64,000 nucleotides of DNA, taken from contig JANVFP010000009.1 in NCBI GenBank assembly GCA_027919835.1, positions 124,001 to 188,000 on the forward strand. The letters are read 5' to 3'. The notes below the pieces were generated by a model, which worked only from the letters and a program-made list of their open reading frames with translations, did no database searches and had not been told where the DNA came from. The stretch's first letter is position 1, and every line of letters starts with the position of its first letter. The DNA is from Lentinula raphanica. Its lineage: Eukaryota > Basidiomycota > Agaricomycetes > Agaricales > Omphalotaceae. A program made the position numbers and the translations under genes. Below, in pieces: positions 1,094 through 40,114 of this stretch.

Positions 1094-2290
1094 CTACCAA
1101 TCCATTCGACTGAAACGAGCCAACTCCTCTTCCGACAAACCCCAATCGAGCGCTAGAGTCAACCTTGCCTCCATATCAGCATAAAAAGCCCGCGTGGCGT
1201 GATCACTCTCAGAGAGCACATATCCATCTCCGCCTCCCTCTATTCTTAGCATCTCTCGTACCAAGACATAATACTCTCTATCCATTTCAACCGTCACGTC
1301 CTTCTCCTTCTCCAAGAGGTCTATCCCGTGTGTAATAAAAAGCAGACCACGGCGTTGTCCATACGAAGTTCCAAGGTCCTTGGTAACCCGCCCGGAAGAT
1401 TCTTTCATAGCCGTCCTTGACTTGAACGTTATCTTTCCCAGTGGCTGTCCACCAACGCGTAAAGCGACTCTGGCATGTCGTTCCTTGGCAAAGTCTTCAA
1501 GCTCTTTGCCATACGTGACAGAAATTCCTCTTTTGTCCCGTTTGAAAGTAAACAGTTCACCCACTCGCCCTTGCCAGTTTTCCGTGGGTGAGCTAGGTTT
1601 TCCTTCTTGTCGTTTTCCAGTGCTGCGATCTCTGCGAAACAAATAGAATTCGACTTCTACAGGTCCATCGGAATCAGCTTGAGAGGGATAAAAAAAACTT
1701 ATGGGTCAAACGAAAAGAAACAGTGGAGTTTGAAATCAACAACTGACAATGAGGGATTTCTGGGAGGCGGTACGCGTTTGATCAGCAAAAGACGAATGAA
1801 TCGGATGAGTGAATGCGACTTACGATTTGGACTCCTCGCTGGAGCGGCTGGCAGGACATTGTCACTTGTCGGCGGCACTTTAGATATGATCAGAGAAAAA
1901 GAAAGAGGAGCCTAGCAAAGGCAACCTACAATTCGAACTCGCCGGAGCTGCTGGCAGGACTCCGTCTCTTGTCGGTAGCACTTCAGGGATGATCAGAAAA
2001 AGGAAAGAGGATCATGAGTAAAGGCAACTTACAATTCGGACTCGCTGGAGCTGCTGGCAGGACTCCATCTCTCGTCGGTGGCACTTCAGGGATGATCAGG
2101 AAAAATGAAAGAGGATGAGGAAAAACAACTCACGGTTCGGACTCGCTGGAGCTGCCAAGACTCCTTTTACTGACGACGCCCCTCCAAAATGATCAGCAAA
2201 GGATGGGAAAAATACGAGTGCCAGGCAGAGCAAGCGTAGAAGGGACAAGGCTGGTCGAATGGGTCGCAAAGGAGGCTGCATATTCGGCAT
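1094..2290 (-). CDS. Micro-exon secreted protein (MESP) A, intact
   Basis: Five exons on the minus strand: signal exon 2134-2290, micro-exons 2033-2083, 1930-1980 and 1824-1877 (51, 51, 54 nt), and large exon 1094-1677. They sum to 897 nt, or 298 residues. The N-terminus starts MPNMQPPLRPIRP, followed by a Leu-rich hydrophobic core and the sequence GVLAAP, a plausible secretion signal. Each micro-exon begins and ends in phase 1 and encodes a near-copy of LPPTRDGVLPAAPASPN, so they look like tandem exon duplicates. The C-terminal domain of about 190 residues contains YYVLVREMLRIEGGGDGY, shared with the other copies. I do not recognise the domain. Acceptors are of the AAG/TAG type and donors GTAAGT-like. 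The start is the first ATG after an ATG-free leader. Secretion is inferred; function is unknown. Confidence 0.72.
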
Positions 2291-2437
2291 ACAAATTGTT
2301 GTTTGCTTTGAGCTTTCAAGAGTTAAGTTAGGTAGATGGTCTGGAGAGATTGTCGTCGAACTGAATACAAAAATGGACGAAAGTTTAGTGCAGGGTTGAG
2401 TACGGTGCGGACTCAGTTTGTGATGAATCGTACATAC

Positions 2438-2506
2438 CTTTGTGATTTCGTGAAGTGTAACTAGTACGAGTCTCGAGATAAGAAATTTGACCAGCAAATC
2501 AATTAT
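2438..2506 (-). promoter_or_regulatory. Conserved 5' leader exon of MESP A
   Basis: An exon-like segment bounded by a CTAG acceptor and a CACAAAG/GTATGT donor. It opens with ATAATTGATTTGCTGGTCAA and has no ATG. The same opening block lies upstream of all seven other family-type leaders in the window. It lies about 150-220 bases upstream of the start codon and is followed by one leader intron. Confidence 0.6.
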
Positions 2507-2509
2507 CTA

Positions 2510-4600
2510 GCTGTGAAAATCGTAGGCAGGAATGCGATTGCAGCAGTTCAGTGTTTATACCATGACGTCGGATGAACAATTCGGGTTATGTGTTGGTTCG
2601 TTCAAAGCCGGAACGATGGGAAGGAGAATGCGAAAAGAATCAGCATGTTAGAACAATACCGTGCAACATCATAGTGAAAGGACTACATACCAAAGGGAAG
2701 CTGGTATGAACTTCTTGGGTGGATAGACTAGGACCACTGGGCTTGAATGGGGTGGATGGGGGTTGAATGCCAAGGTACAAATTTCATATCCGCGATTCAC
2801 AAATCCCGCATGTTGGTGGAGTCTCAGTCATGAACTACCAATGGAAATTCTTATGAGCCCTTTTGCAACACATGCTCCCATCGCCCGAGTCCCTTGCCAC
2901 GGATGCACCCATTGATATCGCCAATCTGCATTATTCAACGTTTTGACTGGCGGAATCCCAAACGTGAAACCCGATGGCTGAAGATGGTTGATTAGGCTCC
3001 TCTGGGCCTCTTGATGACTCTGAAGCATTAGAGGAAGGCCACTATCGAGCAATTTGAGCTGCGAGCAAACCGTTGTTTGTAAGATAGTATTCCAAGGGAA
3101 TCATTCATGGCGAGACACAGATAACATAGGCGACAGACGGACAAGGGTCAGAAATCAATGTTGCGAGCCACGAACAGAAAGAAAGAGGGACCGCCAATGT
3201 CCTTGATTATCCACCATTTCTGCACGCGTTTCATAGACGAGAAAAGCTGTAAGACTATACAATGAACATCATAGTAAACGGATAGTAGCATGCACATACC
3301 TGCAAAGTCCAATCAAAAAGGATGGATCGCGTGATGACCTCCTGGCAGCTCAGACGAGTATCCACGAGCGGACTTCCACGATTTCATCTCCTAGTTCGGA
3401 ATGGATCATCTCGTCAGATTCACCATTCAGCGTTCTCTAGTCAGTCAGAGAAAGTGAACTATTACAATGAAATAGGGAAGTTCGCCAAGGTAGTAACCTG
3501 CGAGGGCGCCTCTCTCGCAGGTCATGCAGTGTGCTCCGAAATCCATATGGAAGTCAGCACCAAGCCACGCCATGGTAGTCTGACGGCGGAAAGGCTTTCA
3601 CTGTGTACTTGGGTATGTGGTATTCCCGATTCGTAGTTCACTAAAACGTTTGGGAACTGTGGGCGACTCACTCGAAAGAGAGACCGACTGCCAGACATAG
3701 TAGGCGAACATATACATGTTGCTGACATTGAACCAGTCTAGCAGAATAGACTGAGTGAGAGGTCATAATCAGGGGATCCGGAAGGTATACTATTAGATAT
3801 TGCAGAAACCTACGACATCGCGCTAGACTTTTCGCCTTTTCTACCCCGGAGGTTTATTCTCTGTGGTTGTAACTAGGATGAGGTCCACACTCAGTCTTGT
3901 TTTGGGGTTTCTGTGTGTGAGAACCTAACAACACCAGCAAGCTCGAGTTCTGGATAAACGCTAACGAAGGGGAACTCATACCATTGATAGGTTGATCCTG
4001 CAAAACCCCAACACACTTACACTCCACCACCACCACCGCCTCTCTATCCATACGAAAGAACGCCAGACACACAATCAGCCCTCCTCCGATACGCCCTAGA
4101 AGTCTGACTCGCTGCAATCCAAAGGAGAGGTGGGACCGTGAAGAGAGGATGTGGGGTTGGAAATTGGTGTGGCAGCTGGACGTTGGGCAAGAAGAATGAA
4201 CTGGCGTTCTCGCCGATGACACGAGCTTGTTGTCAAATTGCTTATGGCTTATGTACATGAAATTAGTTGGAGGATTTCCAACGAGATATGGATGTTCAAG
4301 ACAACCATACAAGGAGATGCCAGATTCCAAAAGCAGAAATGGTTGTCGCCAATGGGTCACGAATAGTGCTAGTGAGGAGGAAGAAAGAAAGCGTGCTCGA
4401 CGATTTCTGAATCTTGGACGTGTGGGACGTGTCGAAGAGAGACTGTACGTGTGTGAAGATAAGCAGCGGGTGGGAATTTAGCGACTATTGCTTTCTCTTA
4501 TCCACCGTCAACTTCGCCATCCTCCTCACCATCTCTACCTCTATCACAACACCAGTATTCACATGCCACAACCCCTGCTCAAATTAGCAATAACAAGGAA
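2510..4600. other. Long spacer with no supported gene
   Basis: The left part (2510-2830) is the distal leader and promoter of MESP A. Beyond it there are only scattered open frames. A minus-strand stretch at about 3440-3660 reads plausibly as protein (it contains DFHMDFGAHCMTCERGALAG) with possible splice sites, and a minus-strand open frame of 168 codons spans 3854-4360. I could not join these into a gene or recognise a family, so I treat them as possible remnants. Confidence 0.35.
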
Positions 4601-4609
4601 GGGGGATAG

Positions 4610-4856
4610 ATTTACCTAGGACGTCGCGCAGAAGCTCAAGAAGTTTCGAGAGGCCTCAGCGGGAGATTTGTTGGAGTTGGAGATCACGTCGCGTTATATG
4701 GTTCAGTTTGGGTCAAATCCGCCTGGTGAGTACTGTGTAATCTTTGCTGGGATAGAGACTTCCCTGTTCTTCGTTGGGATTGTGATGTTGATTCTTTGTG
4801 CAGCAATACCGCCTGGTCTACAACTCATACGTAAGGAGCAAAGCGGTGGAAACTGA
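4610..4856 (+). pseudogene. APH-like kinase 3' remnant (unit A)
   Basis: Only the C-terminal end of the kinase-like gene is present. It has an open stretch containing DVAQKLKKFREAS and RYMVQFGSNPP, an intron (GTGAGT to GTGCAG), then an exon with AIPPGLQLIRKEQSGG and a stop. The same two-exon tail recurs at about 9540-9800 and 17050-17340. No kinase core lies upstream, so it is a truncated duplicate. Confidence 0.5.
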
Positions 4857-5066
4857 GAAGGATCGACGGATCGACATGGATGGAGAATGGAACGAACAGT
4901 CACATTGAGGTCAGGCGAGTGGGGAGCTGAAGACGCCTGAGGAGGGCTACTTGCGAACGAGACCAAGTACATCCACTACAAATCATATGGAGCTTGCGCG
5001 TACCAGTCAGTACATGATCAATCAGATAGTTGCAGTCATAGAGGATAAATAAAAATTGATACTACA

Positions 5067-6064
5067 TTACTGCATATCTTCCATGGGAATTTCAAACAAC
5101 TGTTTCTCAGCCAAATCCTGTGCTGAGATTCGTGGATCAACAAGCACTTCGGTCAACTTCTTCGCCATTTTTTCGTAGCATGTCCGCATCACCTTATCGT
5201 CCTCTGGGACCACCTTTCCCTCTCCAGTTCCCATTACCTTAAACATGTCTCGCAGCCTGACCCACCATTCCCTCTCCATCTCAACGCTCAAGACGCCCGG
5301 ATCTTCGCCCAAGTGACTGATCCCGAAGACAACAAAAAACAGATTATAGGCGAGTTTACCCTCCATGGTCTTGAGCTTGGCGATCAACCGTTGCAGAGAT
5401 TGTTCCATACTCTGGTGCGAATGAAACACTATCGTTCCCATCACCTCTCCAACGGGAATTCTTTCGCTGCTGAAGTTGATGACAGGAGTTTTATCGTCCT
5501 GGTGATAAGACAAGTGTTCACCTATGTTACCCAGCCACCAGTCCGTGGCTTGGACAGGGTTACCATCTGCTCGTTGCGTCTTATCTGCACTGTTGCGAAC
5601 GATGTGGAATGCTGCTGTTACAGGTCCATCATAACCAGCTTGAATGGGTGAATCATATGTTGGGTTAGACAAAAACAAGCGATAGATTCGAAGCCAACAC
5701 CTACGATCGGCTTGAGTTCCCTGTGCAACGGGTGAAGGCGCGTCTACTTCCGCTTGATGATCACCAGTAAAAGAGAAAGGAGTGAAAAGCAACTCACGAT
5801 TCACTTGGGCCGCTACCGTCGACTGGCTCGCAGGGGCTCCGTTCAACAAGATTGTTGGGGGCAGCCCTTGAAGATAATCAGTAAAAACGGGAGGATTATG
5901 AGTAATGATCACTTACGATTCGGACTCATTGGCGCCGCCAAGACTCCTGGCGATAGACCTCCAGGATGGTCGAAAACGGATGGGCAGAGTACGAGTGCTA
6001 GCAAGAGCAAACGTAAAAGGGAAATGGTCGGTCGGATGGGTCGTAGAGGCTGCATATTCGGCAT
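5067..6064 (-). CDS. Micro-exon secreted protein (MESP) B, intact
   Basis: Four exons on minus: signal exon 5917-6064, micro-exons 5798-5866 (69 nt) and 5705-5752 (48 nt), and large exon 5067-5638. The sum is 837 nt, or 278 residues. The N-terminus MPNMQPLRPIRPTIS leads into a strongly hydrophobic core and then SPGVLAAPMSPN, a likely secretion signal. Both micro-exons are phase 1-1. They encode linkers rich in Pro, Ala, Gln and Val. The C-terminal domain has, in order, a DWW motif, VMGTIVFHS, LFFVVFGI and EREWWVRLRDMFKVMG, all with counterparts in copies A, C and D. The signal exon and flanks are closest to copy D at 18-19 kb, pointing to a fairly recent duplication. The function is unknown; I recognise no named domain. 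Confidence 0.75.
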
Positions 6065-6193
6065 ACAACCAGATGCTTGCTTCGAACGAATGTTTTTTTT
6101 GGTAGATTGCGCGGAGAGAGATGTCAAACTAGAAGAACATGAACAATGCAGATGAGTATGTAAACTTGGTTCGAGATGTAACATATTACACAC

Positions 6194-6284
6194 CTTTGTG
6201 GCTTTGTGAAGTTGGTAACGACAGCAGGGAAAGTGTCAAAGTTAGAGTCTCGAGATATAGAGATTTAACCAGCAAATCAATTAT
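6194..6284 (-). promoter_or_regulatory. Conserved 5' leader exon of MESP B
   Basis: Begins ATAATTGATTTGCTGGTTAA and ends CACAAAG/GTGTGT, with no ATG. It is almost the same as the leader of copy D. The exact acceptor is less clear here, because the base run before ATAATT is CGCG rather than CTAG. Confidence 0.55.
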
Positions 6285-6289
6285 CGCGA

Positions 6290-8070
6290 TTCTTGGGGGC
6301 GGTAGATCTTCATAGTATGCAGAAACGCAGCGATTCACACCATGACCGTCAGCAAACATTGTCGTTTCGTTCGTTCATTTCGGAGCGATGCAAAAAGAGG
6401 GTTTGGAAAGAGCATGAAAAAAACACGTCAGAATAAGGATGTGTGATGACGGAGAGTCAAGGACTACATACCGAACCGGGGGGCGTTGGTGTGAACTTTT
6501 TGAGCAGATAGAGTTGAATCACTGGGCTTGAACGGTGTGGATGTGATGAGGACAATTTATGGCCCATAGGTAGGTTCATATCCAATTGCGAGAAGTTGAA
6601 CTCCGAAAAAAATAAACCACGCATTCCATATGCAGATGGAGACCCTCATCTACCCTCATGATCTACTCATGATATCACGTATCGCGATCCACTCTGCTTG
6701 GGGAAAACCTGAACATGAAACTCGCGGCGCTTCGGATCTTTTGAAAACAGGGTTGAGGCTGTTTGAGGAGAGAGCTGAGGAGAGTCAGGGTTGATGCAGA
6801 TGGAGGGTGATGCAGATGCTTGCAGATGACGGACGGGATAATCAATCATCAACCATAAACCGCGCATGCGCATTGATAGAGCCCGTTTCACGTCGAAGAG
6901 GCTGGGAGAAGAATCAAAAACGTAGAAGTAGAACTCGTTCATGCACAGGGATTGGTATCTTTTCATCTTGCAGGAAAAATCCGAGCTATAGTTCACATTG
7001 TACATGGGACAACTTCAATCTTCGAGGGAAACGGTCTGAAACAATTCGAAGTTTGAGCGCTTGAGCAGCCGCCGCTTAAATCTTGTCAGGCTACGAAGGC
7101 TATGTTATCTTTTCGCTTCGTGGTACATAGTTGGCAACATGCCAACAGTTGGAACTTGGCGACCCTTTGAAGTTTGAAGCCCTTTGATCAATCAAGGTGC
7201 AAGAAATGAGTAGGTACATACCTGTAGTACCTGTAATCAGTATGAGAGCAGAGAGAGAGAGAGAGAGAGAATCCAAACCCAACAATGATTCTCAAGGGAT
7301 CAGAATCTTTCATCGGAACAGCCTGAAAGCTGTTTTTGGCTTGTTGTGTATAAGATGCGAAACGGCCTCAGTCGGGATTTTTGAGGTTCATCGACTCGGA
7401 TATCATCTGTGATCATGCTTGTAAGTCATAATTCAAAGTAGATGTAGCATCGTGGGCACGCAGAGCATACAATCATGATACAACATATGTACAACCAACC
7501 TACAATCACCCTCGATCGCAGTGGAAAACACTGAACAGTGGCGCCTTGTGGTCCTAAGGTAGTGAGCTCCTGTACGGCGATCCCAAGTAAACGTCGTCTG
7601 CACAGTGAACATCATGAAGCTTGACTTGTCAGAATCATTCCTGGTTTATCCTATAGAGTATACATCAGCACTCAGTCTCGTTCCGAGTTGAATACTTGAA
7701 TGTTCGAGGTCGAAAGCTTGATGGAGCATAGAACTCACGCATGATCCTATGGCAATCGGCATGACGAATATTGACAACTACCTCGGCCCTCTACCGCTCA
7801 CATTTCTTTTCAGGACATTGATGCATCAACGTTACATTCAACAGTCATGACCGGCGCAGGATCTGTCACGGAGGTTCTATGCAATACTACCAGTAGTATG
7901 CTTTAGCCTGTGAGAAGCGCTGAATAGTGTACGCTCGGAGCGAGAGGTTGAACCTGCTACATCTGTTACAGCAGGAATCAGGGCTAGGGCTAGTGAAAGT
8001 GTCATGCGCCTTGTGGGGCGGAGGTCGGTGATGCACATATACGTTCACGTTCAAACTCTTTGTCGTAGAG
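6290..8070. other. Repeat-unit spacer B
   Basis: No supported gene. The part up to about 7100 parallels 19480-20360. A block around 7360-7420 (GAAACGGCCTCAGTCGGGAT and what follows) recurs at 14330, 20915 and 21570. A (GA)n run lies at about 7244-7270. Open frames here are short and not conserved between units. Confidence 0.5.
7244..7270. repeat. (GA)n microsatellite
   Basis: About 13 consecutive GA dinucleotides. Confidence 0.85.
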
Positions 8071-8320: not shown

Positions 8321-8329
8321 GCATCACTT

Positions 8330-8880: not shown

Positions 8881-8884
8881 TGTT

Positions 8885-9870: not shown

Positions 9871-9879
9871 GGAGCGGAA

Positions 9880-11065: not shown

Positions 11066-13016
11066 CTATAACTGTATCTTGTTAAGGTCGAACAACTGCG
11101 TCTTAGCCAACTCCTTTGTTGACACACCCCGAGCCTCGAGCAAACCATTCAACTTCTCTTTCATCTCTTGGTACTGTTTCCGCTTTTCCACCTCCTTCTC
11201 AGGAATCTCCATACCCTGTCCAGATCCCCATAATCTGAGTATCCGTGACACCATGACAAACCAATCCCTATTCAACTCAACACTCACGACGTCCTCATCA
11301 TGTTCCAGGAAGGCAATACCAAATGCGATAAAAAACACATTAGAGATAAATTCATCCTTCTTGACTTTCGAGAGTTCGTCGATCAGGTTCTGCAAAGACT
11401 TGGCCATAGTTGTCGAGGAACGAAACGTTATCGTTCCATCACCTTTCCATGAAAGCCGAATTGACTGTCATCCCTGATAATGACTTCATCTTTGCCAAGT
11501 GCATACATGAGGAGATCACCTAGTCTCGCATGCCACCATTCATTGGATCTGACAGGTTTTTCGTCTATTCGTTGGCGACCATCCTGTGCCCTGCGAACCA
11601 GCTCAAATGGTACGTGCACATAATGAACGTATTCAGCTTCAAGAGAGAGAGGTAAAATTCCGGGTTAGACAAAAACAAACACTATTTTCAAGCTAATGAC
11701 TTACGATCTACTTGATTCGCTGGGGGGCAGCTGGTGAAGGCGCATCCATTTGGCAATAGCAGGTGAAGGGAATGAGGATTTTGATTCAGTAATAATGTAG
11801 CCAATGGAAAGTTATAGCTTACGACTTTGATGAACTGCATGACCAGGCTGTATTTCCATATGAGCATGTTCTAATCAGTGGGTGAAAAGAATAGGGATTT
11901 CAGTTCAGTGGCAGTGAGGAAGATAACGAGCGAAGTTGTAACTTACGATTTGGTTGAGCAAGGGGTATTCCTGAGCGAGCAAGTTCTAATCAGAGGGTGA
12001 AGGGAGATTCTAACTCAGTGATGATGAAGACAATGAGCAAAATTGCAGCTTACGTGGATCAACCTGTTGAGCAGGATGAGCAAGGTTTCCCCCAGGTTGC
12101 CAATTAGTAGGTGATATTTCCGGAACCGTGTGAGCAAAATCTGATCAGTGGGTGAAGGGATTTCGGATTTCGGATCAGCTATGAGGGAAACACTGCCAAG
12201 TAAAGTTGCAACTTACGCGGATTAACCTGTTGAGCAGGGTGAACAGAGTCGGCATTTCCCCATTGCCAACCAGGAACATATTCTAATCAGCGGGGGAAGG
12301 AAATGAGGATTTCGGCTCAGCAATGTAGAAGACAATGAGCAAAGTTGCAACCTACGTGGATCAACCTGTTGAGTATGGTGAGCGGAGTTTTGCCGTTGCC
12401 AACCGTTAGCATGTTCTAATCAGCGGAGGAAGGAAACGAGGATTTCAGTTCAATAATGCAAAGAAACTGAGTAAAGTTGCAACTTACGTGGATCAACCTG
12501 TTGAGCAGTATGAGCAGGGTTTCCCAATTGCCAATTGTGAGCATATTCTAATCAGCGGGTGAAGGGAATGAGGATATTGGTTCAGCAATGACGAAAAGAA
12601 ACAGGCAGAGTTGTAGCTTACGATTTGGATGAAGGGGGTGAGCAGATCGAGCAGTGTCACTTTCCCATTGCCAAGCAGGCGCCGGTATTTCCGTGTGAGC
12701 ATATTCTGATGAGCACGGGTGAAGGGAATGGCGATTTTTGGTTCAGCGATGATGAATACAATGACCGAAGTTGTAACTTACGATTTGAATCAATGTGTTG
12801 AGCAGGTTGGGCAGTGTTTCCCCAAAGCTCGGGCAATTCAGGTTGTTCAGGTTGAGCAGGCGGTATGTCTTGATTTCGGTTCATCGGGGCAGCTGAAACT
12901 CCTTTGATGGCTGGGCCCCCTCCGAAATATTCATGTCCTGAAAGGAAGAGGATAAACGCCCCCAAGAGCATGCACGAACGGGGAGATTTCGGTCGGATGG
13001 GTTGCAGAGGTGGCAT
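11066..13016 (-). pseudogene. MESP C: eight micro-exons, one-base frameshift
   Basis: Ten exons on minus. The signal exon is 12782-13016. The micro-exons are 12622-12705, 12488-12547, 12356-12415, 12217-12282, 12054-12140, 11947-11985, 11823-11870 and 11705-11719, that is 84, 60, 60, 66, 87, 39, 48 and 15 nt. All are phase 1-1. The large exon is 11066-11636. Several micro-exons encode variants of a short theme around AHTAQQVDP, so the linker is a Gln/Ala/His/Pro repeat. The large exon is 571 nt where copy B has 572: one G is missing at about 11435, turning the VMGT motif into VMER and a stop. Beyond that the frame is clean to the end (DWFVMVSRILRLWGSG and so on). It may be a recent null allele, a pseudogene or an assembly error. 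One leader intron also has AT where others have GT. Confidence 0.68.
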
Positions 13017-13273: not shown

Positions 13274-13385
13274 ACTTATGTTTAACTTCGTGACGTTCAA
13301 GACAGTGAGCGAGAGTGATAGCAGCCCGCTGCGGTTTTGGATGTTCAAGTTCCGAGATGAAAAATTTGACCAGCAAATCAATTAT
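13274..13385 (-). promoter_or_regulatory. Conserved 5' leader exon of MESP C
   Basis: Begins ATAATTGATTTGCTGGTCAA after GGGGTCCTAG and has no ATG. The upstream intron end AAAAACGCCTTGGGGTCC is shared with copies E, F, G and the kinase-like gene at 46.8 kb. Its own donor appears to be AT in place of GT. Confidence 0.58.
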
Positions 13386-13389
13386 CTAG

Positions 13390-18110: not shown

Positions 18111-19238
18111 TTACGAATAATAATCTGTAAGTGTATCAGTCGGTATCTTTCTAAGGTCGAAAAACTCGTTCATCTGCTTTTCAGAAATATTCGGATCCTT
18201 CAGCGCATCATTCAACTTTTTCCCCATCAGAAGGTAACGGTTCCACTTTGCCTCATCGTTCGGAGAGATCGCCTTACCCTCTCCAGATATCCCCATAAGA
18301 ATCATGTTCCGTAGCATGACATACCACTCTCTCTTCATCTGAACATCTAGTACGTCCGGATCTTCTTCCAGGAGGAAAACCCCAAACGCGATGAAAAACA
18401 GAGCAGAGACAGCGTCTTCCGGCTTGATTTGTGAGAGTTCGTGCCGCATCCGGTTCAAAGAGTCTTTCATAGTCGTCAGTGAACGGAACGTTATCGTCCC
18501 CATCAAATCTCCAGGGTCACAACCGCCCGACCCAATGTTGGAGGTCTGGAGAATGGCTTCATCTCCTTTATGTGTATAGACAAGCGCACCACCTATTTGT
18601 CCTTGCAAAATTTCGTTGTGCAAGATCTCCAACTTCTCTCGTCGTACTCTTCCATTCCTGGACTTGCGAATCAGTCCGAATGGTAATTGCATAGCAGCTT
18701 GATTTTGGGTTAGACAAAAACAAATAATGGAATCAATTCATCTTACTTGAATCTGAGTGACTCGTCGCCGGTGGAGACATGCTCATTGGCCCTTGAAGAT
18801 CGTTAGCAAAAGAGGAAAGAGGCTCTCATCAGTGAAACCAACTTACGATTCGGACTCGCTGGAGCCACCATCAATTTATGATTCGGGTTACTCGCAGAAG
18901 CCCCTGGTGGACTCGTGCTTGTTGGCCCTTGAAGATAGTCAACAAAAGAGGGAAAGGGGAGAAGTTGGCAAACCATCTTACGGTTTGGACTTGCTGGAGC
19001 CGTTGGCAAGACTCCATTTATCGCTGGCGGAGGCCCTTGAAAATATCAGCAAAAGAGGAAGGTGTACGAGTGAATGTCACTTACTCGGATTCGGACTTAT
19101 GGTCGGAGCCGCCAAGACTCCTAGTAGCGATGCCCCTCCAAGATGATCAACGGATGGATAGAGTACGAATGCTAGCAAGAGCAAACGTAAAAGGGAAATG
19201 GTCGGTCGGATGGGTCGCAGGGGCTGCATATTCGGCAT
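18111..19238 (-). CDS. Micro-exon secreted protein (MESP) D, intact
   Basis: Five exons on minus: signal exon 19085-19238, micro-exons 18982-19035, 18847-18927 and 18747-18791 (54, 81, 45 nt, all phase 1-1), and large exon 18111-18697. The sum is 921 nt, or 306 residues. The N-terminus MPNMQPLRPIRPTIS and hydrophobic core match copy B closely. The micro-exons encode Pro/Ala/Ser-rich linkers with repeated APASPN. The large exon holds LMGTITFRSLTTMKDSL, LFFIAFGVFLLEEDPDV and KREWYVMLRNMILMG, the family hallmarks, and ends with an extra hydrophilic tail. No breaks were seen. Secretion is inferred from the N-terminus; the function is unknown. Confidence 0.74.
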
Positions 19239-19380: not shown

Positions 19381-19470
19381 CTTTGTGGCTTCGTGAAAGA
19401 ACGGTAACAACTGCAGGGAAAGCGTTGTTCGAGTCTCGAGATATAGAGATTTGACCAGCAAATCAATTAT
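19381..19470 (-). promoter_or_regulatory. Conserved 5' leader exon of MESP D
   Basis: Begins ATAATTGATTTGCTGGTCAA and ends CCACAAAG/GTATGT. It has no ATG and is nearly identical to the leader of copy B. Confidence 0.55.
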
Positions 19471-19474
19471 CGCA

Positions 19475-23469: not shown

Positions 23470-24469
23470 CTACTGCTTTGGCTTGAATTCTAGTAATCTA
23501 GGGTCATCCGCAGAACGTTCGCGTATAATATTCGCCAGCAAGTCACTGTACACCTTCTGTAGCTCCGCATCTGTCTCGGAAATCGCATCTCCCGATCCAC
23601 TTCCCTTTACGTGCAACATGCCTGCCACAAGATAATACCAGTCATCATTCATCTCGATTTCCAAGCCCGCCTTTTTGGCCTCGGACACCGCATGGAACAG
23701 ATAGAGAAGATTCGTTGCCGGCTTGGCATCGTTGATAGTATGGAGGAATTCGATTGTCTGGGTTTTCGCAGTCGACTCGGAAGCATACGTGATCATTCCT
23801 ACGGCTATTCCTGGGTTGCTAGACACCTTGTCGGTTCCTCTAAGCCCGGGGCCCCATTTGACGGAAGAAACACGTTTTGGTTTCCTGGTTTGGCCTCCTG
23901 CGGCTAGCATTGCAGCTGTTGCAGAGATATCGGTATGAGGTAGGTTTATGGCAAAGTAATTCCCGCCTTGCAAAGCCCACTTGTCTTTGGGTGCAGCAGG
24001 CTTGCTCGGTGAAAGTTTGCGGTTTACTAGGTACAAGATGATTTCGAAAGGTTCTAAATCAGCGAGGTGAAAGGAATGTGGGGTTTGGATATTGAATGAT
24101 GGAGAGAACGACTTGGAGCAACATTGTCACTTACGATTTCGATCAGCTGATTGAGTAGGTCGTAATTCCAGTTCAGCAAGCGTTACTCCCGTGTGAACGA
24201 AGTCTAAACAGCAGTTGAAGGAAACGAAGATCTCATTTCAGCAATAATCAAGACGATGACCAAAGTTGTAGCTTACAATTTGGATCGACTTGTTGAGCAG
24301 TTTCCGGTTGAGCAGGCAGTTGGTCTCGGTTTCGTTTCGCCGGGGCAGCTAATACTCCTCTGATAGCTGGGGTCCCTCCAAAATGATCATGGAGAGAGAG
24401 GAAGAGTATAAGCGCCCCCCAGAGCAAGTGCGAAAGGGAGAGTTTTGGTCGGATGGGGTCAGAGTGCAT
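23470..24469 (-). CDS. Micro-exon secreted protein (MESP) E, intact
   Basis: Three exons on minus: signal exon 24277-24469, one micro-exon 24135-24203 (69 nt, phase 1-1), and large exon 23470-24053. The sum is 846 nt, or 281 residues. The N-terminus MHSDPIRPKLSLSHLL is followed by a hydrophobic stretch and HFGGTPAIRGVLAAP, the same signal layout as copies A-D. The C-terminal domain belongs to a second subfamily with F and G: it has KWALQGGNYFAINLP, a GPGLRG motif, a TYASEST motif and NDDWYYLVAGMLHVKGSGSG. The W-Y-Y-L/V core aligns with the WYVMLR core of subfamily 1. The function is unknown. Confidence 0.75.
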
Positions 24470-24727: not shown

Positions 24728-24837
24728 CTGTGGCCTTGTGAAGTCCAAGTGAGGTTATTAGTGAGAGTGATAGCAGCCCGCTGCAATTTTGAATTTTCGA
24801 GTTCCGAGGTAAAACGTTTGACCAGCAAATCGATTAT
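24728..24837 (-). promoter_or_regulatory. Conserved 5' leader exon of MESP E
   Basis: Begins ATAATCGATTTGCTGGTCAA and ends GGCCACAG/GTACGT. It has no ATG. It is followed by a second leader exon and intron before the start codon. Confidence 0.6.
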
Positions 24838-24839
24838 CT

Positions 24840-25549: not shown

Positions 25550-26752
25550 CTATTTCCGAGTCTTTCTCCATTCCAAAAACTCGTTCACAATCGAAGGATC
25601 ACCCGCCATATAGTACTCGACTGCCCAATTCAAAGCGAATTGCCGGTCGAACCAGTCCACCTGAAAGGAAAAACTCAGCAATTTCCTGAGCAGAATTTGA
25701 AAGGGCACTTACAAACATGGCGTCGTCGATTGCTTTTTTCTCTCCATGCGATCTCAGGAGTCCAGTGTGGTCCCAGTCGATCATCGCCACGCCTTTCACT
25801 CTAAGACCAGAAGATCTCTGCACAAGGTCGACCAGCACATTCCCGTTATGAATATCCTTCCTGGTGAAAGAAAAAAGAGCACGACCGGGATTCAAAATAC
25901 AGGATATTCAAGAGTGAAAGAAGTTCCTTACCCTGGAAGTAATCGATCTTCGTTGCTCTTTGTTTCGAAAGCGTATTTGTGGAGCTGTTTCTTCGTCTTC
26001 ACTCGGACTGAGGCGAGCGCTGCCTGCTGTTCCTCCTGTCCTGCGTCCAACCACAGCTCGTTTTCTACTACCGCTCCACCAGGTTTCTGTTTCATCAAGA
26101 TAGCACCAACCTCTTGGCCGTTGGCGCGGTCTATCAGTATCCCTGTGTGGTGCGGAATTCCGAGTTGTTCCATGGCGTGGGGTTCGCAAGAGGCAACTAT
26201 CTTTCCTTCATCGGATGTGATGTCAACCGCTTTCACAAGATAATCTCCTTTGTACTCCTTGCCTCCGAAGGTGAATTTCTTTGCGTCGACACTGTAGATA
26301 TTATAATTGTTGCCTCCGTTGTTTTTGATATTGTCCCAAGGGTTAGAAAGAGGGAGCCTCGCGAACTCTTTGCTACCCTTCTTCCCTGTTGGAAGCACTG
26401 TCAATCGAACAAGCCTTGACGAACGCAAATGTGGACTGACAGAAATACTCATCATTTTGGTTCATGCCTGGACATTCGAGCTTCTGAAATGATTCAATCC
26501 AACTCTACAAAAGCATTCATCGATTAGTATGATCGAAAATTTGTTCAACAACTGCTAGAAAACACTGACTTGGTGCTTTACATTATTCTGATATACCTGA
26601 TCGTGTTTCCAATTCCAAAAGCTATGCCAATCTTCCTCAGTCGAGAAAGGTTCTTTCGGGCGCGCCCTCGGCGTCGGCATAGCGTGTGCGCTCAAGTCGA
26701 AACCAAGCAAACAACCGACAAGCGGCAGTAGCAGATTTTGGCGGGCTACCAT
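25550..26752 (-). CDS. Secreted APH/kinase-like protein 1
   Basis: Five exons on minus: 26570-26752, 26468-26504 (37 nt), 25932-26385, 25713-25860 and 25550-25660. The sum is 933 nt, or 310 residues. It starts MVARQNLLLPLVGCLLGF with SAHA, a signal peptide. A kinase-like fold of the APH type is suggested by YLVKAVDI (candidate ATP-site Lys), CEPHAMEQLGI (candidate Glu), KDIHNGNVLV (Asp and Asn of the catalytic loop, Asn at +5) and VAMIDWDHTG (metal-binding Asp). The His two before the catalytic Asp is Gly. The donor of the second intron is GC (CCAG/GCATGA); the 37-nt exon is the same length in all three paralogues, which supports this. A secreted kinase-like enzyme or binding protein is inferred; its substrate is unknown. 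Confidence 0.7.
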
Positions 26753-32200: not shown

Positions 32201-32206
32201 CTATAG

Positions 32207-32316
32207 ATAATTGATTTGCTGGTCAAACTTTCCATCTCGGAACTCGAAATTTCAAACCTGCAGCAGGCTGCTACATATCACTCTAGCTAACTGTCTTGAA
32301 CTTCACGAAGCCAAAG
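32207..32316 (+). promoter_or_regulatory. Conserved 5' leader exon of MESP F
   Basis: Begins ATAATTGATTTGCTGGTCAA after CTATAG and ends CCAAAG/GTATGTGC. It has no ATG. Two further leader exons follow before the start at 32580, giving an ATG-free leader of four exons. Confidence 0.62.
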
Positions 32317-32579: not shown

Positions 32580-33581
32580 ATGCACCCTCTGCAACCTGGC
32601 ATCCGACCAAAACTTGCCCGCTCGGTCTTGCTCTGCGGGGCGCTTATGCTCTTCCTATCTTTCCATGATCATTTTGGAGGAACCCCGGCTATCAAAGGAG
32701 TCTTAGCTGCCCCAATGAACCGAAATCAAAACATACCGCCTGCTCAACAGGCTGAACTGCATCGTAAGCTACAACATCGGTTGTTGTCTTCATCATCGCT
32801 GAACTAGAAATCCTCATTCCCTTGGGCCTTCGCCTGCTTAGAACTCGCTCACATGGATGGAATAACGCTTGCTCAACTGGAAATGCCGCTTGCTCACTCG
32901 CAAATGCAGCCTGCCACTTCGCCACCGCCTGCGCAACCGGTTCATCACGAAAATCGTAAGCTGTGACCTTTTCTCATTATTCTTATCACTGCTGAGCCTT
33001 CACCTGCTAATCCAGAACCTTTCGAAGTCCCCTTGTATCTAAACCGCAAAGATGCCGCCTATAACCCCAGAGATGATTTACATAAGCGTGTTCTACCCAA
33101 AGAGAAGTGGGTTGTGCAAGGGGGGGCCGATTACTTTGCCATAAACCAGCCTGCCTCCGATAGCCCTAACAAACAGGCAGGAAGATATGTTCCTCCCGTC
33201 AGACGAGGCCCTGGACTTGGAGGACAGTCGGCGTTATCCAGGCCTGGAATGAGGATTGGCACACTCACTTATCCTTCCGAGTCAACCGCGGCACTCGAGA
33301 TGAACGAATTCGTCGACGAAGTCAAACAAATGGCCCAGGCAGACACGAATCTTCTCTACTTGCAAAATGTGCTGTCTAGAGGCGAAGGGAAGGGCCGGCT
33401 TGTTGTAGATGATGACTGGTATTATCTTATGGCGAGCATGTTGCATGCAAAGGGGACTGGAGAAGGAGCTGCAATTCCCGATAATAATGCGGAGCTACAG
33501 AAGGTGTACAGTGACATGTTGGAGAAAATGGTACACGAAAGGTCTGCATCGGACCATAGATTACTGAAGTTCAAACAGTAG
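32580..33581 (+). CDS. Micro-exon secreted protein (MESP) F, intact
   Basis: Three exons: 32580-32763, 32842-32955 (114 nt, phase 1-1) and 33016-33581. The sum is 864 nt, or 287 residues. The N-terminus MHPLQPGIRPKL is followed by a hydrophobic core and FGGTPAIKGVLAAP. The micro-exon encodes a Gln/Pro/His/Ala-rich linker with repeated LAQLE and LAHSQ-like units, which suggests fusion of smaller repeats. The large exon carries KWVVQGGADYFAINQP, GPGLGG, TYPSEST and DDDWYYLMASMLHAKGTGEG. It is the closest relative of copy E and lies in the opposite orientation on the other side of the MAM3-like gene. The function is unknown. Confidence 0.76.
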
Positions 33582-33589
33582 TACCATGC

Positions 33590-34165: not shown

Positions 34166-34169
34166 CTTT

Positions 34170-34335: not shown

Positions 34336-34338
34336 GGG

Positions 34339-34769: not shown

Positions 34770-35095
34770 ACCACATCTCAATAACTTTTTCCTCCTCCCC
34801 ACCGCTACGACTTTTCTCTGCTGGCCAGAGAAACCAAAGTCATACGTGCTCTCCCTTTCCCAACGACCACTGAATACCCAATATCAAAGAGTTCTATACA
34901 GCTCCCACAAGAATGGTAGCCCGCCAAAATCTGCTACTGCCGCTTGTCGGTTGTTTGCTTGGTTTCGACTTGAGCGCACACGCTATGCCGACGCCGAGGG
35001 CGCGCCCAAAAGAACCTTTCTCGACCGAGGAAGATTGGCATAGCTTTGGAATTGGAAACACAATCAAGTATATCAGAATAATGTAAAGCACCACT
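34770..35095 (+). pseudogene. Recent inverted copy of promoter and exon 1 of kinase-like gene 1
   Basis: Nearly identical to the reverse complement of about 26573-26900. I count about five differences over roughly 310 bases. The start MVARQNLLLPLVGC is kept, but a one-base deletion after the DWHS codons (near 35045) shifts the frame. Similarity ends just at the exon 1 donor (CACCAA/GTCAGT becomes CACCACTCG). No further exons follow. Confidence 0.82.
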
Positions 35096-35099
35096 CGAA

Positions 35100-35465
35100 C
35101 TACCGCTATCCTCCAATATAACAGCCTGTATTGATGATCGCTTCCATCTCCGTTCAGGACGGCGTGAAAGGGAAAGGAATCCGAAGGACTGAAGTCGGAG
35201 ACCAGAGGGAAGAGAGCTAAGAGGAAGCTGTAAAACATATGTGAGCATGAAACATCAAAACTTTTGAAACCAGGCTAGAAATTAGGGATGACTCGAGTAC
35301 AGATAGATGAGACGACGAGAACATCAAACAATGCGATGACAACGACCGAAGGAAGAAGTATGTATTAGCAAAAGAACAACACCACCAACGAACGGATAGG
35401 CAAACTCAACACTTGAGCTTGAGCTCCCATTCGACACGTATAAGTACCACCTGCTTCGAGACGAT
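35100..35465. other. Breakpoint region, no gene seen
   Basis: Sequence between the kinase-like duplicate and the inverted MAM3 remnant. No coding signal was recognised. Confidence 0.4.
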
Positions 35466-35469
35466 GAAA

Positions 35470-36910
35470 CGAGATAAGAGCCACTCATCCTCTCATAATC
35501 ATCTCCGTCGTCGCCTTTCTCTTACCCACGTTATCTTCGTATCGATCTGTCTCGTCCACATTCTAGAAAGATGATTCCTAGAGAGTTCAAAGTAACGTTC
35601 AGTACACAGTTGTTGCTGTGATCGAGTGTTAGCGATGGTTCAGTAGCGAGAGTCGATAGAGTGTCAGAAAGCACCTCGATAATGTCCTTCAACGTGACTA
35701 CACCCAGCGCACCACACGCGTATCCTCACACCTAATAAGTTCTTCACTTCGGCCTTCTCCTCACTATGATCGCTCGACGCAGCCAGTATCTGAGAAATCT
35801 AGACCCATGGTACCGAGGATTGACCTGGATCATATTGGCTTCAAAGAATCTGTGAATTCGTGCATTAGTATCGAAGTTATTTCCTGAGCTTGGGCAGAAA
35901 GAGGCAGAGACACAGACGCCACGAGCGTACGACGTCGGGATATACGAACGAAGAAGGATGGAGAAGAATGAAGATTGAAGAAGAAACGAAGAATGCAGAA
36001 TTCAGAATGAAGGAAGAATAAGAAGATACAAAATTGAAGAAAACAACCCACCTAGCGATCACCCTACCCAAAAGCACCAACAGCACCAACAGCACACTGA
36101 TCTCGATCTTCCACCAAAATTCGGGCGAGCCATGTGTCGTCGTGGTGGTCGTTAGCATTGTTGCTGTTGGTGTGTCTGATACTATGCCATCTAGTCCTTG
36201 ATTCGATACTCTCCCCAAGTCTGGGACTCCCGATTGCGATACTCCAATTTGAAGAAGGCTCAAAGGTCCCTAATGTTTGGCGGTTGTGTTGGCCGTTGTA
36301 GACATCGATAAGACATACGTCCTAAAGATGGAGGTTTGGGCTTGACGAGCGAAGGATCGGAGGCATGGGAGGTAAATGGGAGGTGCCAGAGAAGAAGAGG
36401 AGAGAGTTTCTTCGCATTCATGATTTGACGGGATGTACGAGAAACAAACGCAAAGGTTATGAAGGTCAGAGACGATGAAAGTTGGAAGAGAGAAAATTAG
36501 GATGAACTACGTAATGATTTGACTCATCCGAATAGCCGTAAAATTCATTCAACTTGATTCCAACAATGAACTGTCTGAGCTTTCGCTTGTCTCTCGCCTT
36601 CCGGACACCTATATACACATTTTGTGAGCGCTTGTGTATTACACCTACAATGAACAATGCATGCTATCATTTGGCTCTCATCCGAAACCCAAATGACAAG
36701 AACCAAAACCACGACTCTTCACAAAAAAGAACTCGGACACCCGTTCTGGAGGATATACGGATATGTTTGTTTGCGATTATTCCATGGCTGATACTCCGAC
36801 TTTTCCTTGTTTCTGTCTTCATACGCAGTTCGGGCTTTATGGCGGGATCGAGTCTCCCTTCCTCCAAGAAACCAGAAGAAATCCTCCTCTTTCCAACATC
36901 TCTCCATCCC
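35470..36910 (-). pseudogene. Inverted MAM3-like pseudogene with internal deletion
   Basis: On minus, 36430 downward begins MRRNSLL and then reads GSPEFWWKIEISVLLVLLVL (exon 1). 35880-35720 matches exon 2 (a GLD motif and GCGTCGAGCGAT). 35720-35470 matches the CBS exons: GALGVVTLKDIIE, then VDETDRYEDNV, then EMIMRG with the donor changed from GT to AT. Exons between DUF21 and the second CBS segment are missing. 36430-36910 resembles the MAM3 promoter in inverted orientation. Confidence 0.68.
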
Positions 36911-36914
36911 TACC

Positions 36915-38039
36915 CCTCCTCCACCCCTTTCCTCTCACTCCTAGGCGAATGTGCAGACGCACCAAACCTTCTAGAGCGGGCGTCAGACACACAACGCGTG
37001 CGCGTGCGCGTGAACGTTTGAACGCTTGCCAGTAATAATTTAGATTCTGGAACGACCTTCAAGGCTGCAGCCTGCAAGATTCTGAGAAGGACCTACAACG
37101 GCTTAGAGACGATGATTATGAGAGGATGGTGCGGCGGAGTTGCTTGCAGGTGAGTGGCTGGCCTATAGCCTACACCAGGTCTTCTTTCTCTTTCGATTCA
37201 GAGTCACTTAAATACAGCTACAAACACAGATATTTACCCCGCCTCACCCCGCCCCCCTACTCCTCCATCTATCCCCAAGCATTGTCAAGCTCGAACGACT
37301 TGAGCACGACTCTATTCCTTTGGAAACTAGTACAAATTCACCATCACCATCACCAACGAGTAGCCTGTACCCCAGTAAGTGCAATTCCTTGGAGTACATG
37401 CTCCATTTCCGCGAGCCGTCGTTTGCCGTCGTTCAACAATCAGATCTGATTCCAATGGTCCAAATCAGCTATACATGCAACTGGTCCAGGAAGTTCCTCT
37501 CAGCTCTTCCTCAGCTCTCCTCCCCTTCTAGTCTCCCTTCGTATTCGTCGTTCCGTCGGATTATGCGTGAGTCTTGTTTGCCTGAAGTTATGCGTCCATC
37601 ATGCTTCGACATAAGATTCAACATTGTAATTCATTTCAGATCATTTCTGAACAGTTGAACGTTGAACAGTTGTCTACTACTGTTGTCTCTGTAGATAACG
37701 AGTCAAGGTCTCATATTCACCCAAGTAGAATCGATGGCGAATTGCGATGCAAGATAGCACAAGATTCCAAGCAGTATGTATCGATACATAGGGGACACGC
37801 AGCAGGACAGAGCAGAACTCAGCAACACTATACCGATAGGCGACACTTTGTTGCTTCATTGTATCGCAGACCAGTTTGATACAGTACATATATGTCATAT
37901 AATTTGTTATCTTCTGTTATGCGAGGGTCCGTCGCAACAAAGCGAGGCTATAGGAGGCTATGCGGGATGATGGATGATCTTGTGGCATTTTATAAACTCA
38001 GCCAGCGTATCACGTCCACCCCATTCCAATCCCCGTACT
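36915..38039. other. Spacer with one MAM3 3' remnant
   Basis: 37095-37130 reads like the DDYERM/IMRG junction and 37270-37330 reads SIVKLERLEHDSIPLETS on plus, matching the last exon of the MAM3-like gene and most similar to the unit C remnant. An alternating GCGTGCGCGTGCGCGTG run is at about 36999. No intact gene is seen. Confidence 0.5.
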
Positions 38040-38453
38040 GGATGACTTCCCGTAAGCATTTTGCGTTTATTAACGTCGCATTAATCGTTACGTGAACCTT
38101 AAGCGATGTCTGCCGGAGAGCGGCATTGTGTCACATCAAGAAATTTGAAATTCTGGAGCTTTTCTAAATGCTCAAATCTACAAGAGGGTCCCGACCCTCT
38201 TGTAGATTGGAATGCGCTGTATTTTTCCCTAAGCGAGTCGGCTAATGTCGGGTATCCACTCAAAAATGATCGCACGTCGTGTTTGAAGAGGAGGGATCAG
38301 AATCCCCATCAATAATTTTCCCTCATGCAGCGTCCTTCTCAGAACCTTACGGGAAAACACTCTGTATTAATTTTGTATTTTTGCTATTACAAATTCGTGA
38401 CAGATATTTAGAAAATACGACGCTCTATTAAAAATCGTTACGGGAAGTCATCC
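38040..38453. mobile_element. MITE-like element with 16-bp terminal inverted repeats
   Basis: Left end GGATGACTTCCCGTAA (38040-38055) is exactly inverted at the right end (38438-38453). The similarity continues more weakly inward. The flanks share ACT on both sides, a possible 3-bp target duplication. The element is 414 bp, AT-rich towards the right, and has no transposase frame. Its middle holds a 34-base hairpin. The superfamily cannot be set from this alone. Confidence 0.75.
38175..38208. repeat. Perfect 16-bp inverted repeat with 2-base loop
   Basis: AATCTACAAGAGGGTC, then CC, then its exact reverse complement. It lies inside the MITE-like element. Confidence 0.95.
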
Positions 38454-38548
38454 ACTTCAACGTGTTAACGCTCAAACTATCATCTCTCGCCGCTCGGTAT
38501 GTGCTATGTTATATATGTGTTCTCACTCTCTCATTCACGCTCTCTCCC

Positions 38549-38582
38549 ATTCTCTTCTTCTTCTTCTTCTTCTTCTTTTTCT
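38549..38582. repeat. (TTC)n microsatellite
   Basis: About ten TTC/CTT units in the leader intron of MESP G. Confidence 0.8.
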
Positions 38583-38715
38583 CCTTCACCTTCCAAACGC
38601 TCCGCTGCCCTTCGAATGAAATGGACCATCTGTTGCCCCCCGCGGCGCAAAATATCACGACATAACCTCGAACATTACCAGTACGACTCCCAAAAAAGAC
38701 GCTTTAGGGTCCTAG

Positions 38716-38806
38716 ATAATCGATTTGCTGGTCAAATTTTATATCTCGGAATTCGACAATTCACACCTGCAGCGGGCTGCTATCACTCTTTTCGCTCTTC
38801 CACAAT
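38716..38806 (+). promoter_or_regulatory. Conserved 5' leader exon of MESP G
   Basis: Begins ATAATCGATTTGCTGGTCAA after GGGTCCTAG and ends CCACAAT/GTAAGTC, with no ATG in the exon. One leader intron present in copies E and F seems to have been lost with the adjoining sequence. Confidence 0.55.
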
Positions 38807-38942
38807 GTAAGTCAATGTCATCGTGGACGTCGAAACCATACTCATCAGAACTTTTTCAACCCTTTGCCTCGTTCTAGCTTGAAAATCTCTCCTCGTTTTT
38901 GTTCCGTCTCTCTCACCGTACTCGTCTCTCACAGACTCAAAC

Positions 38943-40114
38943 ATGTACCCTCTTCTCCCCATCCAACCAAAACTTCCCCTTTTGCGCTTGCTCTGGGGGC
39001 GTTTATCCTCTTCCTCTCTTTCCATGACCGTTTCGAGGGGCCCTAGCCATTAAAGGAGTCTTAGCTGCCCCAATAATCCAAAACCAAAACATACCGCCTG
39101 CTCAAGCGGTTGATCTCCATCGTAAGCTACAACATCGGTCGTTGTTTACATCATCGCTGAACTGAAATCCTCATTCCAAACAGAGCTTGCTCAAATGCAA
39201 GGAGTAACACTTGCTCAACTGGAAATACGACCTACTCAACCAGGAATGCTGTTGGCTCACCCGGGGATGCAGCCTGCGACTTTGCCACCACCTGATCAAC
39301 CAATGTATCCAGCAAATCGTGAGTGATAAACTTCCTCGTTACCTCATCATCGCTGAACGGAAGTCCTCATCCCTTTCACCCTGGCTGATCAGAACTTGCT
39401 CAGTCAGGAGAACAGCCTCACCCGGGACCACAGCCTGGTCAATCAGTTCATCCACATCATAAGCTACAACTTTTTGCTTGTTGTTCTTCCTCACTGCTGA
39501 CAGCAAAAGCTCATTCCTTTCACCCCGCTGGTTCAGAACCTGTCATGATCAATTTGCACCTGAATCGCAAAAATATCGTCCTTAAGCCCCAAGATGGCTG
39601 GGACAAGCCTGATATAGGGACCGAAAAGTTGTCGTTGCAAGCGGGTGATTACTTCTCCATAAGCCTGCCTCCGGCCTATAGCTCTCTAAACAAAGGAGGG
39701 AGACACGTTTCCTCTGTTGTATATGGCCCTGGGCTTGGAGGGACCAAGCACTTACCCCGCCTGGAATGATGATAGGGACACTTACATATAAACCCGACTC
39801 CAAAGAGTCAACTGTGAAATCTGCATTTGACGGAACTCCTCCGAAGGATCGAGTACGACAAGACGGCAGAGACGAATCTGTTCTTCTTGAACCATGTGCT
39901 ATCCATCGCCAAAGAAAAGTTCGAGGAAGTTGTTTTGAATAAAGAGTGGTATTATTCTGTGGTGTGGATGTTGCATGAAAAGGCAACTGGAGCAGGAGCT
40001 GAGATTCACAAGAATGATGTGAAGCTACAGAAGGTATACAGGGACACGTTGGCAAAGATTGTAGAGGATAGATCTGCGTTAGATGATAGATTACTGGCCT
40101 TTAAGCAAAAGTAG
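38943..40114 (+). pseudogene. MESP G, decayed copy
   Basis: Signal exon 38943-39121 starts MYPLLPIQPKLPLLRLL but is two bases short compared with F and runs into a stop. Micro-exons 39184-39318 (135 nt) and 39393-39458 (66 nt) keep phase 1-1 and the Gln/Pro-rich theme, but the donor of the second is AT instead of GT (39459-39460). The large exon 39537-40114 keeps YGPGLGG and NKEWYYSVVWMLHEKATGAG but has two compensating indels with stops between them (near 39750-39825). It is a clear pseudogene of the E/F subfamily. Confidence 0.72.

What the first reader, a model, noticed from the sequence alone, without database searches (positions are those of the whole stretch)
1094..40114. A fungal family of secreted proteins built from tandem frame-neutral micro-exons
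In each of seven copies, one to eight tiny exons lie between a signal-peptide exon and a single large exon. Sizes I read are 51/51/54 (A), 69/48 (B), 84/60/60/66/87/39/48/15 (C), 54/81/45 (D), 69 (E), 114 (F) and 135/66 (G). All are multiples of three and all phase 1-1. So any subset can be included or skipped without changing the downstream frame, and the number differs between paralogues. Schistosome micro-exon genes (MEGs) use the same logic to diversify secreted proteins. I know of no described fungal counterpart. It could be a device for variable effector linkers.
Basis: partly seen in the sequence, partly recalled or inferred. Interest (0 to 1): 0.93.

Follow-up and report, generated by a model that had tools for sequence, protein, structure and literature searches.

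The report
Mushroom gene family with duplicated linker exons
A small cluster of probably secreted mushroom proteins has a variable linker, written in short exons that look like repeated copies of the end of the signal-peptide exon; this would explain why such exons keep the reading frame, and nothing seen here shows that the fungus mixes and matches them.

Summary
The window is Lentinula raphanica contig C9. The exons are real. H, outside the window, has five more (60/51/57/45/48). In six intact-looking copies 15 of 15 small exons are multiples of three, against 7 of 21 introns. Corrections: C (eight exons) and G are broken; C's last three exons are uncertain; A may hold a further 12-nt exon; in E, skipping makes a stop.

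Best explanation: tandem duplication of the signal exon's 3' end plus adjoining intron. In A all three units align to that end, acceptors on a phase-1 glycine codon, so frame neutrality is inherited, not evidence of regulated skipping. The exons encode a Pro/Ser/Thr/Ala/Gln-rich linker before a ~190-aa domain without a recognised fold. At 45-114 nt and 8-26% of the coding sequence this is not a MEG. No RNA data were available. A 22-nt element, alike but for two pyrimidine positions, lies upstream of A-H and nowhere else exactly in 49 Mb.

The parts
2134..2290 (-). copy A signal-peptide exon (157 nt)
2033..2083 (-). A small exon 1, 51 nt, phase 1-1
   Evidence: P0007
1930..1980 (-). A small exon 2, 51 nt
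1824..1877 (-). A small exon 3, 54 nt
1748..1759 (-). A possible further exon, 12 nt (QIPHS in P0007)
1094..1677 (-). A large exon
1835..2155 (-). A tandem exon-intron array, period 103, 3.1 copies
5917..6064 (-). copy B signal exon (148 nt)
5798..5866 (-). B small exon 1, 69 nt
   Evidence: P0011
5705..5752 (-). B small exon 2, 48 nt
   Evidence: P0011
5067..5638 (-). B large exon
12782..13016 (-). copy C signal exon (235 nt)
12622..12705 (-). C small exon 84
12488..12547 (-). C small exon 60
12356..12415 (-). C small exon 60
12217..12282 (-). C small exon 66
12054..12140 (-). C small exon 87
11947..11985 (-). C small exon 39 (parser's best: 24)
11823..11870 (-). C small exon 48 (parser's best: 25)
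11705..11730 (-). C last segment, acceptor unresolved: reader 15 nt (keeps frame), acceptor placed here 26 nt (does not)
11066..11636 (-). C large exon, frame changes at its middle
12199..12590 (-). C tandem exon-intron array, period 132, 2.9 copies
19085..19238 (-). copy D signal exon (154 nt)
18982..19035 (-). D small exon 54
   Evidence: P0001
18847..18927 (-). D small exon 81
18747..18791 (-). D small exon 45
18111..18697 (-). D large exon
24277..24469 (-). copy E signal exon (193 nt)
24135..24203 (-). E small exon 69; skipping it would create a stop
   Evidence: P0013
23470..24053 (-). E large exon
32580..32763 (+). copy F signal exon (184 nt)
32842..32955 (+). F small exon 114
   Evidence: P0006
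33016..33581 (+). F large exon
38943..39121 (+). copy G signal exon (179 nt), frame broken
39184..39318 (+). G small exon 135
39393..39458 (+). G segment 66, followed by AT instead of GT
39537..40114 (+). G large exon, frame broken in the middle
44..577 (-). remnant of a further large exon (copy I); no signal exon seen
2486..2507 (-). 22-nt upstream element of A
6264..6285 (-). 22-nt upstream element of B
13365..13386 (-). 22-nt upstream element of C
19450..19471 (-). 22-nt upstream element of D
24817..24838 (-). 22-nt upstream element of E
32206..32227 (+). 22-nt upstream element of F
38715..38736 (+). 22-nt upstream element of G
46469..46490 (+). the same element (1 mismatch) upstream of a gene of another family

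Best explanation
A family found here only in L. raphanica, clustered on one contig: presumed signal peptide, Pro/Ser/Thr/Ala/Gln-rich linker, ~190-residue domain. The linker is written in short exons that arose by tandem duplication of the 3' end of the signal exon together with the start of the next intron. In the duplicate (subfamily A/B/D/H), codons of the signal exon (the DHFGG stretch) came to serve as branch site and 3' splice site, at a phase-1 glycine codon; the donor was already phase 1. The new exon therefore spans two phase-1 points of one reading frame and is frame-neutral by construction. Further duplication and divergence make linker length differ between paralogues and strains. 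Most likely the small exons are spliced in constitutively. Shown: exon structure; similarity of small exons to each other and, for 11 of 23, to the signal exon. Inferred: direction of the duplication, codons turned into splice site, constitutive splicing, secretion, linker function.
For: Exon models, borne out by NCBI models for B, D, E, F. A: all three exon+intron units align to the signal-exon end (scores 85, 67, 56; largest of 300 shuffles 35, 35, 34), acceptor at -48, phase 1, donor at 0. In that test 14 of 23 units beat all 300 shuffles (A 3 of 3, D 2 of 3, C 7 of 8, E 1 of 1, F 1 of 1, B 0 of 2, H 0 of 5), but shared donor and intron start help them. Exon sequence alone: 11 of 23 at 5 of 500 shuffles or fewer (A 3 of 3, C 6 of 8, D 1 of 3, E 1 of 1, B 0 of 2, F 0 of 1, H 0 of 5). 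A matrix of the intron 3' ends, own copy left out, peaks at the DHFGG/DHLGG codons in A (14.5 bits) and D (11.3), each reached by 2 of 1000 shuffles. Tandem arrays of period 103 (A) and 132 (C). Small exons 15 of 15 multiples of three, introns 7 of 21. Linkers of six copies 44-64% P+S+T+A+Q against 22-29% in the three domains counted. Linker length differs between strain proteins of like domain, e.g. E type: 45 vs 118 aa with 164 of 192 domain residues identical (P0013/P0014).
Against: B and H exons show no significant similarity to their own signal exon; there the origin rests on analogy. The intron 3' ends alone, aligned with the signal exon, are not significant in A (80, 54 and 154 of 500). 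The matrix peak is weak in B, E, F (66, 61, 115 of 1000), and lies elsewhere without significance in H and C (627, 483); it peaks one base beyond the mapped acceptor. In one search the acceptor could be mapped for 10 of 23 units, 9 at phase 1 and C's seventh exon at phase 0; phase 1 is nearly forced once the donors align. Between tandem units exons are not clearly better preserved than introns (no shuffle control), so divergence shows no constraint. B-type linkers of P0011 and P0012 are the same length (44 aa). NCBI models are predictions; some from other strains keep introns (P0008, P0010).
Confidence: 0.6

Rival explanations
1. MEG-like device: frame-neutral exons kept because regulated skipping yields a repertoire of secreted isoforms.
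For: All subsets of exons stay open in A, B, D, F, H and for C's first seven exons; exon content differs among models of other strains (P0002/P0003 against P0004/P0005; P0018 against P0019); 1,527 coding exon skips are counted in one analysis of S. commune.
Against: No transcript evidence here; skipping in E makes a stop; symmetry is expected from duplication; the same S. commune paper gives 1% of coding events as exon skips; strain differences also look like other acceptors and kept introns, and may be prediction differences; the copy with most exons is broken.
Confidence: 0.13
2. Reverse origin: the signal exon gained its 3' end by fusion with a small-exon unit (loss of one intron), not the other way round.
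For: The alignments used for the best explanation are symmetric; GATCAT..GGAG in the signal exon looks like an old branch site and acceptor.
Against: The DHFGG codons occur in signal exons of both subfamilies, also in E and F whose real acceptors do not resemble them; the signal exon presumably needs this segment between hydrophobic core and cleavage site (inference).
Confidence: 0.17
3. The small exons are partly artefact: several are really retained introns or longer exons, and the chain was set by eye.
For: Introns 2 and 3 of B are open multiples of three and two models from other strains read through one or both (P0008, P0010); the automatic parser preferred other acceptors in D and H, a read-through in B, and at a looser setting a mixed-phase chain in A (14.3 against 14.2).
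Against: NCBI models of this contig splice exactly these exons in B, D, E, F; the best chains of A, D, H outscored all 200 shuffles.
Confidence: 0.1

Closest known systems
Schistosome micro-exon genes (MEGs)
   Same: secreted-type proteins, symmetric small exons, variable exon number between genes
   Different: MEGs have most of the coding region in very small symmetric exons, said to allow alternative splicing (PMC4350168, passages); here 8-26% of the coding sequence, 45-114 nt, splicing variants not shown
Aphid bicycle effector genes
   Same: fast-evolving putative effector family recognisable by many small internal exons of one phase
   Different: phase 2 and about 17 exons on average (PMC9168663, passages); here phase 1 and 1-5 small exons in intact-looking copies
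[quoted passage not shown]
   Same: duplicated segment crossing an intron-exon boundary brings new splice signals (PMC4974935, abstract and passages)
   Different: here the duplication is repeated and makes new frame-neutral exons; in A and D the acceptor appears drawn from coding codons
SP7-like effectors of Rhizophagus
   Same: fungal secreted family, signal peptide, imperfect hydrophilic repeats, conserved intron before the first repeat (PMC11333574, passages and section 6)
   Different: described as Glomeromycotina-specific; relation by sequence was not tested
Xlr2 microexon of Trichoderma virens
   Same: fungal small exon
   Different: one regulated microexon in a transcription factor; the abstract says functional microexons had not been described before in filamentous fungi (PMC11121469, abstract and outline)

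Membership tests
Schistosome MEG | most of the coding region in very small symmetric exons | tested here: not met
   8-26% of coding sequence in six intact-looking copies; 0 of 15 exons at 36 nt or less (the 36-nt bound is recalled)
Schistosome MEG | exons symmetric (multiple of three, same phase at both ends) | tested here: met
   15 of 15 in A, B, D, E, F, H
Schistosome MEG | alternative splicing of the small exons | not testable with these tools
   no RNA data
Schistosome MEG | secreted product | tested here: inconclusive
   hydrophobic core followed by VLAAP read by eye in the sequence; no signal-peptide predictor was run
Aphid bicycle genes | internal exons of phase 2 | tested here: not met
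   21 of 21 introns in six intact-looking copies are phase 1
Tandem exon duplication | neighbouring exons homologous to each other | tested here: met
   TRF arrays over exon and intron in A and C, none in H; exon identities A 78-90%, C first seven 67-90%, H 65-89%, D 69-80%, B 62%, without shuffle control
[quoted passage not shown]
   whole-unit alignment in A and matrix peak in A and D support it; 3' ends alone not significant
SP7-like effectors | family signature at the end of each repeat | not tested
   signature letters not given in the passages read

The most novel reading that the evidence does not exclude
A self-propagating exon cassette in a fungus: a signal exon whose own codons double as a latent 3' splice site, so that each local duplication adds a ready-spliced, frame-neutral linker exon, giving a fast-changing secreted family under one shared 22-nt upstream element, with isoforms further varied by splicing.
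Probability: 0.15. Interest if true: 0.72.

Novelty: new variant of a known kind. Interest (0 to 1): 0.42.

Why it matters
It gives a concrete route by which symmetric exon arrays can arise without selection for alternative splicing, which bears on how such arrays in parasite and effector genes are read. Linker content differs between strain proteins of one species, so the idea can be checked with ordinary RNA data and strain genomes.

Tried and rejected

Relatives: three protein searches found 20 proteins; 19 carry the name Lentinula raphanica, one (P0007) no name. The search needs shared 5-residue words and one search scored only the 7,999 best candidates, so distant relatives in other fungi are not excluded.

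Genome-wide scan for three good donors at 96-125-base spacing: 137 places against 363 for the reversed control, so no excess; among the places listed (the list was cut), the only run of four overlapping places outside the C48 array and a short-unit repeat on C6 was copy H. The scan misses C (longer period) and A (one GTAGGT donor).

My parser disfavoured AAG acceptors. It ranked other acceptors first in D and H, a read-through first in B at the first setting, mixed-phase chains just ahead in A and an extra phase-2 intron in F at the looser setting, a phase-0 intron inside the large exon in one listed H chain, found none for G, and bridged C's break with introns I do not believe. I set the acceptors by hand after D's NCBI model. 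All chains listed for B and D were phase 1.

Intron three-fold bias (retention-neutral introns) rejected: 7 of 21. Better conservation of exons than introns between units: not seen. No Rfam family and no tRNA in the window.

Full report
WHERE. The window is bases 124,001-188,000 of contig C9 (1,505,092 bases) of a 49-Mb genome. NCBI proteins of Lentinula raphanica (locus prefix C8R42DRAFT) on a contig of the same length equal models D, E and F letter for letter, so this is that species, family Omphalotaceae. The right end of the window holds a GCN2-like kinase gene (RWD and anticodon-binding domains above cut-off, weak kinase match).

THE FAMILY. There are two subfamilies by the large exon: A, B, C, D, H and E, F, G. 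Three protein searches returned 20 proteins, 19 of them named L. raphanica and one unnamed.

THE OBSERVATION. With donors and acceptors set by hand after D's NCBI model, the exon lengths are A 157|51,51,54|584; B 148|69,48|572; D 154|54,81,45|587; E 193|69|584; F 184|114|566; H 148|60,51,57,45,48|602. All 21 introns are phase 1. P0001 (D), P0006 (F) and P0013 (E) are identical to the models; P0011 (B) is identical over the last 256 of 278 residues and has a different start; A's array is inside P0007. Shuffling the stretch between signal and large exon (200 times each) gave no chain as good in score as the parser's best for A, B, D, F and H (E: 1), and chains with as many introns, all in phase 1, in 0 (A), 5 (B), 0 (D), 32 (E), 14 (F), 0 (H) cases. 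The chain scored there is the parser's own, which can differ in some acceptors; for A it has one intron more.

WHAT IS WRONG OR WEAK IN IT. G has broken frames in signal and large exons and AT instead of GT at one donor, while proteins of two other strains, P0018 and P0019, are intact-looking relatives of G; P0018 keeps the 135-nt segment. Skipping E's exon makes a stop; in A, B, D, F, H and C's first seven exons every subset is open. None of the 15 small exons in intact-looking copies is 36 nt or less; the median is 54, and they form 8-26% of the coding sequence.

WHERE THE EXONS COME FROM. TRF sees exon-intron arrays in A and C, not in H; small exons of one gene resemble each other (A 78-90%, H exons 3-5 83-89%, C first seven 67-90% identical, no shuffle control). 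More telling, in A each unit, from the branch site to beyond the donor, aligns to the 3' end of the signal exon and the start of its intron (scores 85, 67, 56; shuffles up to 35), with the acceptor on the same place, 48 bases before the donor, at phase 1. D's first unit does the same (34 against at most 27). Over all, 14 of 23 units beat all 300 shuffles; the acceptor could be mapped in 10, of which 9 at phase 1 and one (C's seventh exon) at phase 0. Without intron sequence the similarity holds in 11 of 23 exons (A, six of C, D's first, E), not in B, F or H. A matrix made of intron 3' ends from the other copies finds one strong site in the signal exon of A and of D, at the codons of DHFGG/DHLGG (14.5 and 11.3 bits; 2 of 1000 shuffles each), weaker in B, E, F, none in H and C. 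The 3' ends alone, aligned by pairs, are not significant in A. I read this as tandem duplication of the signal-exon end, with its codons turned into a 3' splice site at a glycine codon. Phase-1 introns near the signal-peptide cleavage site are known to be over-represented; Tordai and Patthy explain it by glycine-codon proto-splice sites (as cited in PMC1626468, passages). A segment between two phase-1 points of one frame is a multiple of three and symmetric without any selection for skipping.

WHAT IT LIKELY DOES. The exons encode a linker, 44-64% Pro, Ser, Thr, Ala and Gln in six copies, against 22-29% in three domains counted, between a presumed signal peptide and a domain of about 190 residues with a fairly confident but unmatched model. 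Some strain proteins show that linker length changes faster than the domain: E type 45 against 118 residues with 164 of 192 domain residues alike; G type 97 against 53 with 184 of 192 alike; in B type P0011 and P0012 have equal linkers (44). Some differences between strain models look like kept introns (P0008, P0010) or other acceptors (P0017 against P0020, by eye) rather than whole-exon skipping; DNA of those strains was not available, so prediction differences cannot be separated from real ones. Constitutive splicing is my expectation: in S. commune 1% of coding-region splicing events are given as exon skips, though a separate junction analysis in that paper counts 1,527 coding exon skips (PMC5034255, passages).

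A SHARED UPSTREAM ELEMENT. GATAATYGATTTGCTGGTYAAA, a pattern taken from these copies, occurs without mismatch in front of all eight copies A-H, 217-374 bases before the ATG, and with one mismatch in front of a gene of another family at 46.8 kb; allowing one mismatch there are only these nine places in 49 Mb, and none for the reversed control. It is kept better than the surrounding leader, which suggests common regulation; this is inference.

NOVELTY. Full-text searches for microexons in fungi, tandem exon duplication in fungi, and micro-exon genes with fungal effectors (best-ranked listings only, 20 of 61, 1 of 1 and 12 of 1,715 papers) showed me no described counterpart, but cover open-licence papers only. 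I rate it a new variant of a known kind: tandem exon duplication with an apparent twist in the source of the acceptor.

Noticed in passing
window 2486-2507, 6264-6285, 13365-13386, 19450-19471, 24817-24838 (-); 32206-32227, 38715-38736, 46469-46490 (+); C9:96530-96551 (-): A 22-nt element, alike but for two pyrimidine positions, upstream of eight family copies and with one mismatch upstream of a gene of another family; no other place in the 49-Mb genome at up to one mismatch.
   Followed up: partly
window 25928-26461 (-), 47080-47643 (+), 50755-51276 (+): A second, dispersed family (KLVDI..CEP..LGIWHRTG motif): 11 matches on five contigs of the genome, no Pfam hit above cut-off in the three members scanned.
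   Followed up: partly
window 46469-47643 (+): The member of that second family at 47 kb shares the upstream element and, by alignment, parts of the leader of the first family, as if it had taken over its promoter.
   Followed up: partly
window 44-577 (-): Remnant large exon (copy I); in P0007 a second domain resembling it by eye follows that of copy A in one model.
   Followed up: no
G000 C48:272797-290280: Long tandem repeat array with GTGAGT motifs, seen in the donor-pattern scan.
   Followed up: no
window 57028-63183 (+): GCN2-like eIF2alpha kinase gene: RWD and anticodon-binding domains above Pfam cut-offs, a weak kinase match.
   Followed up: no
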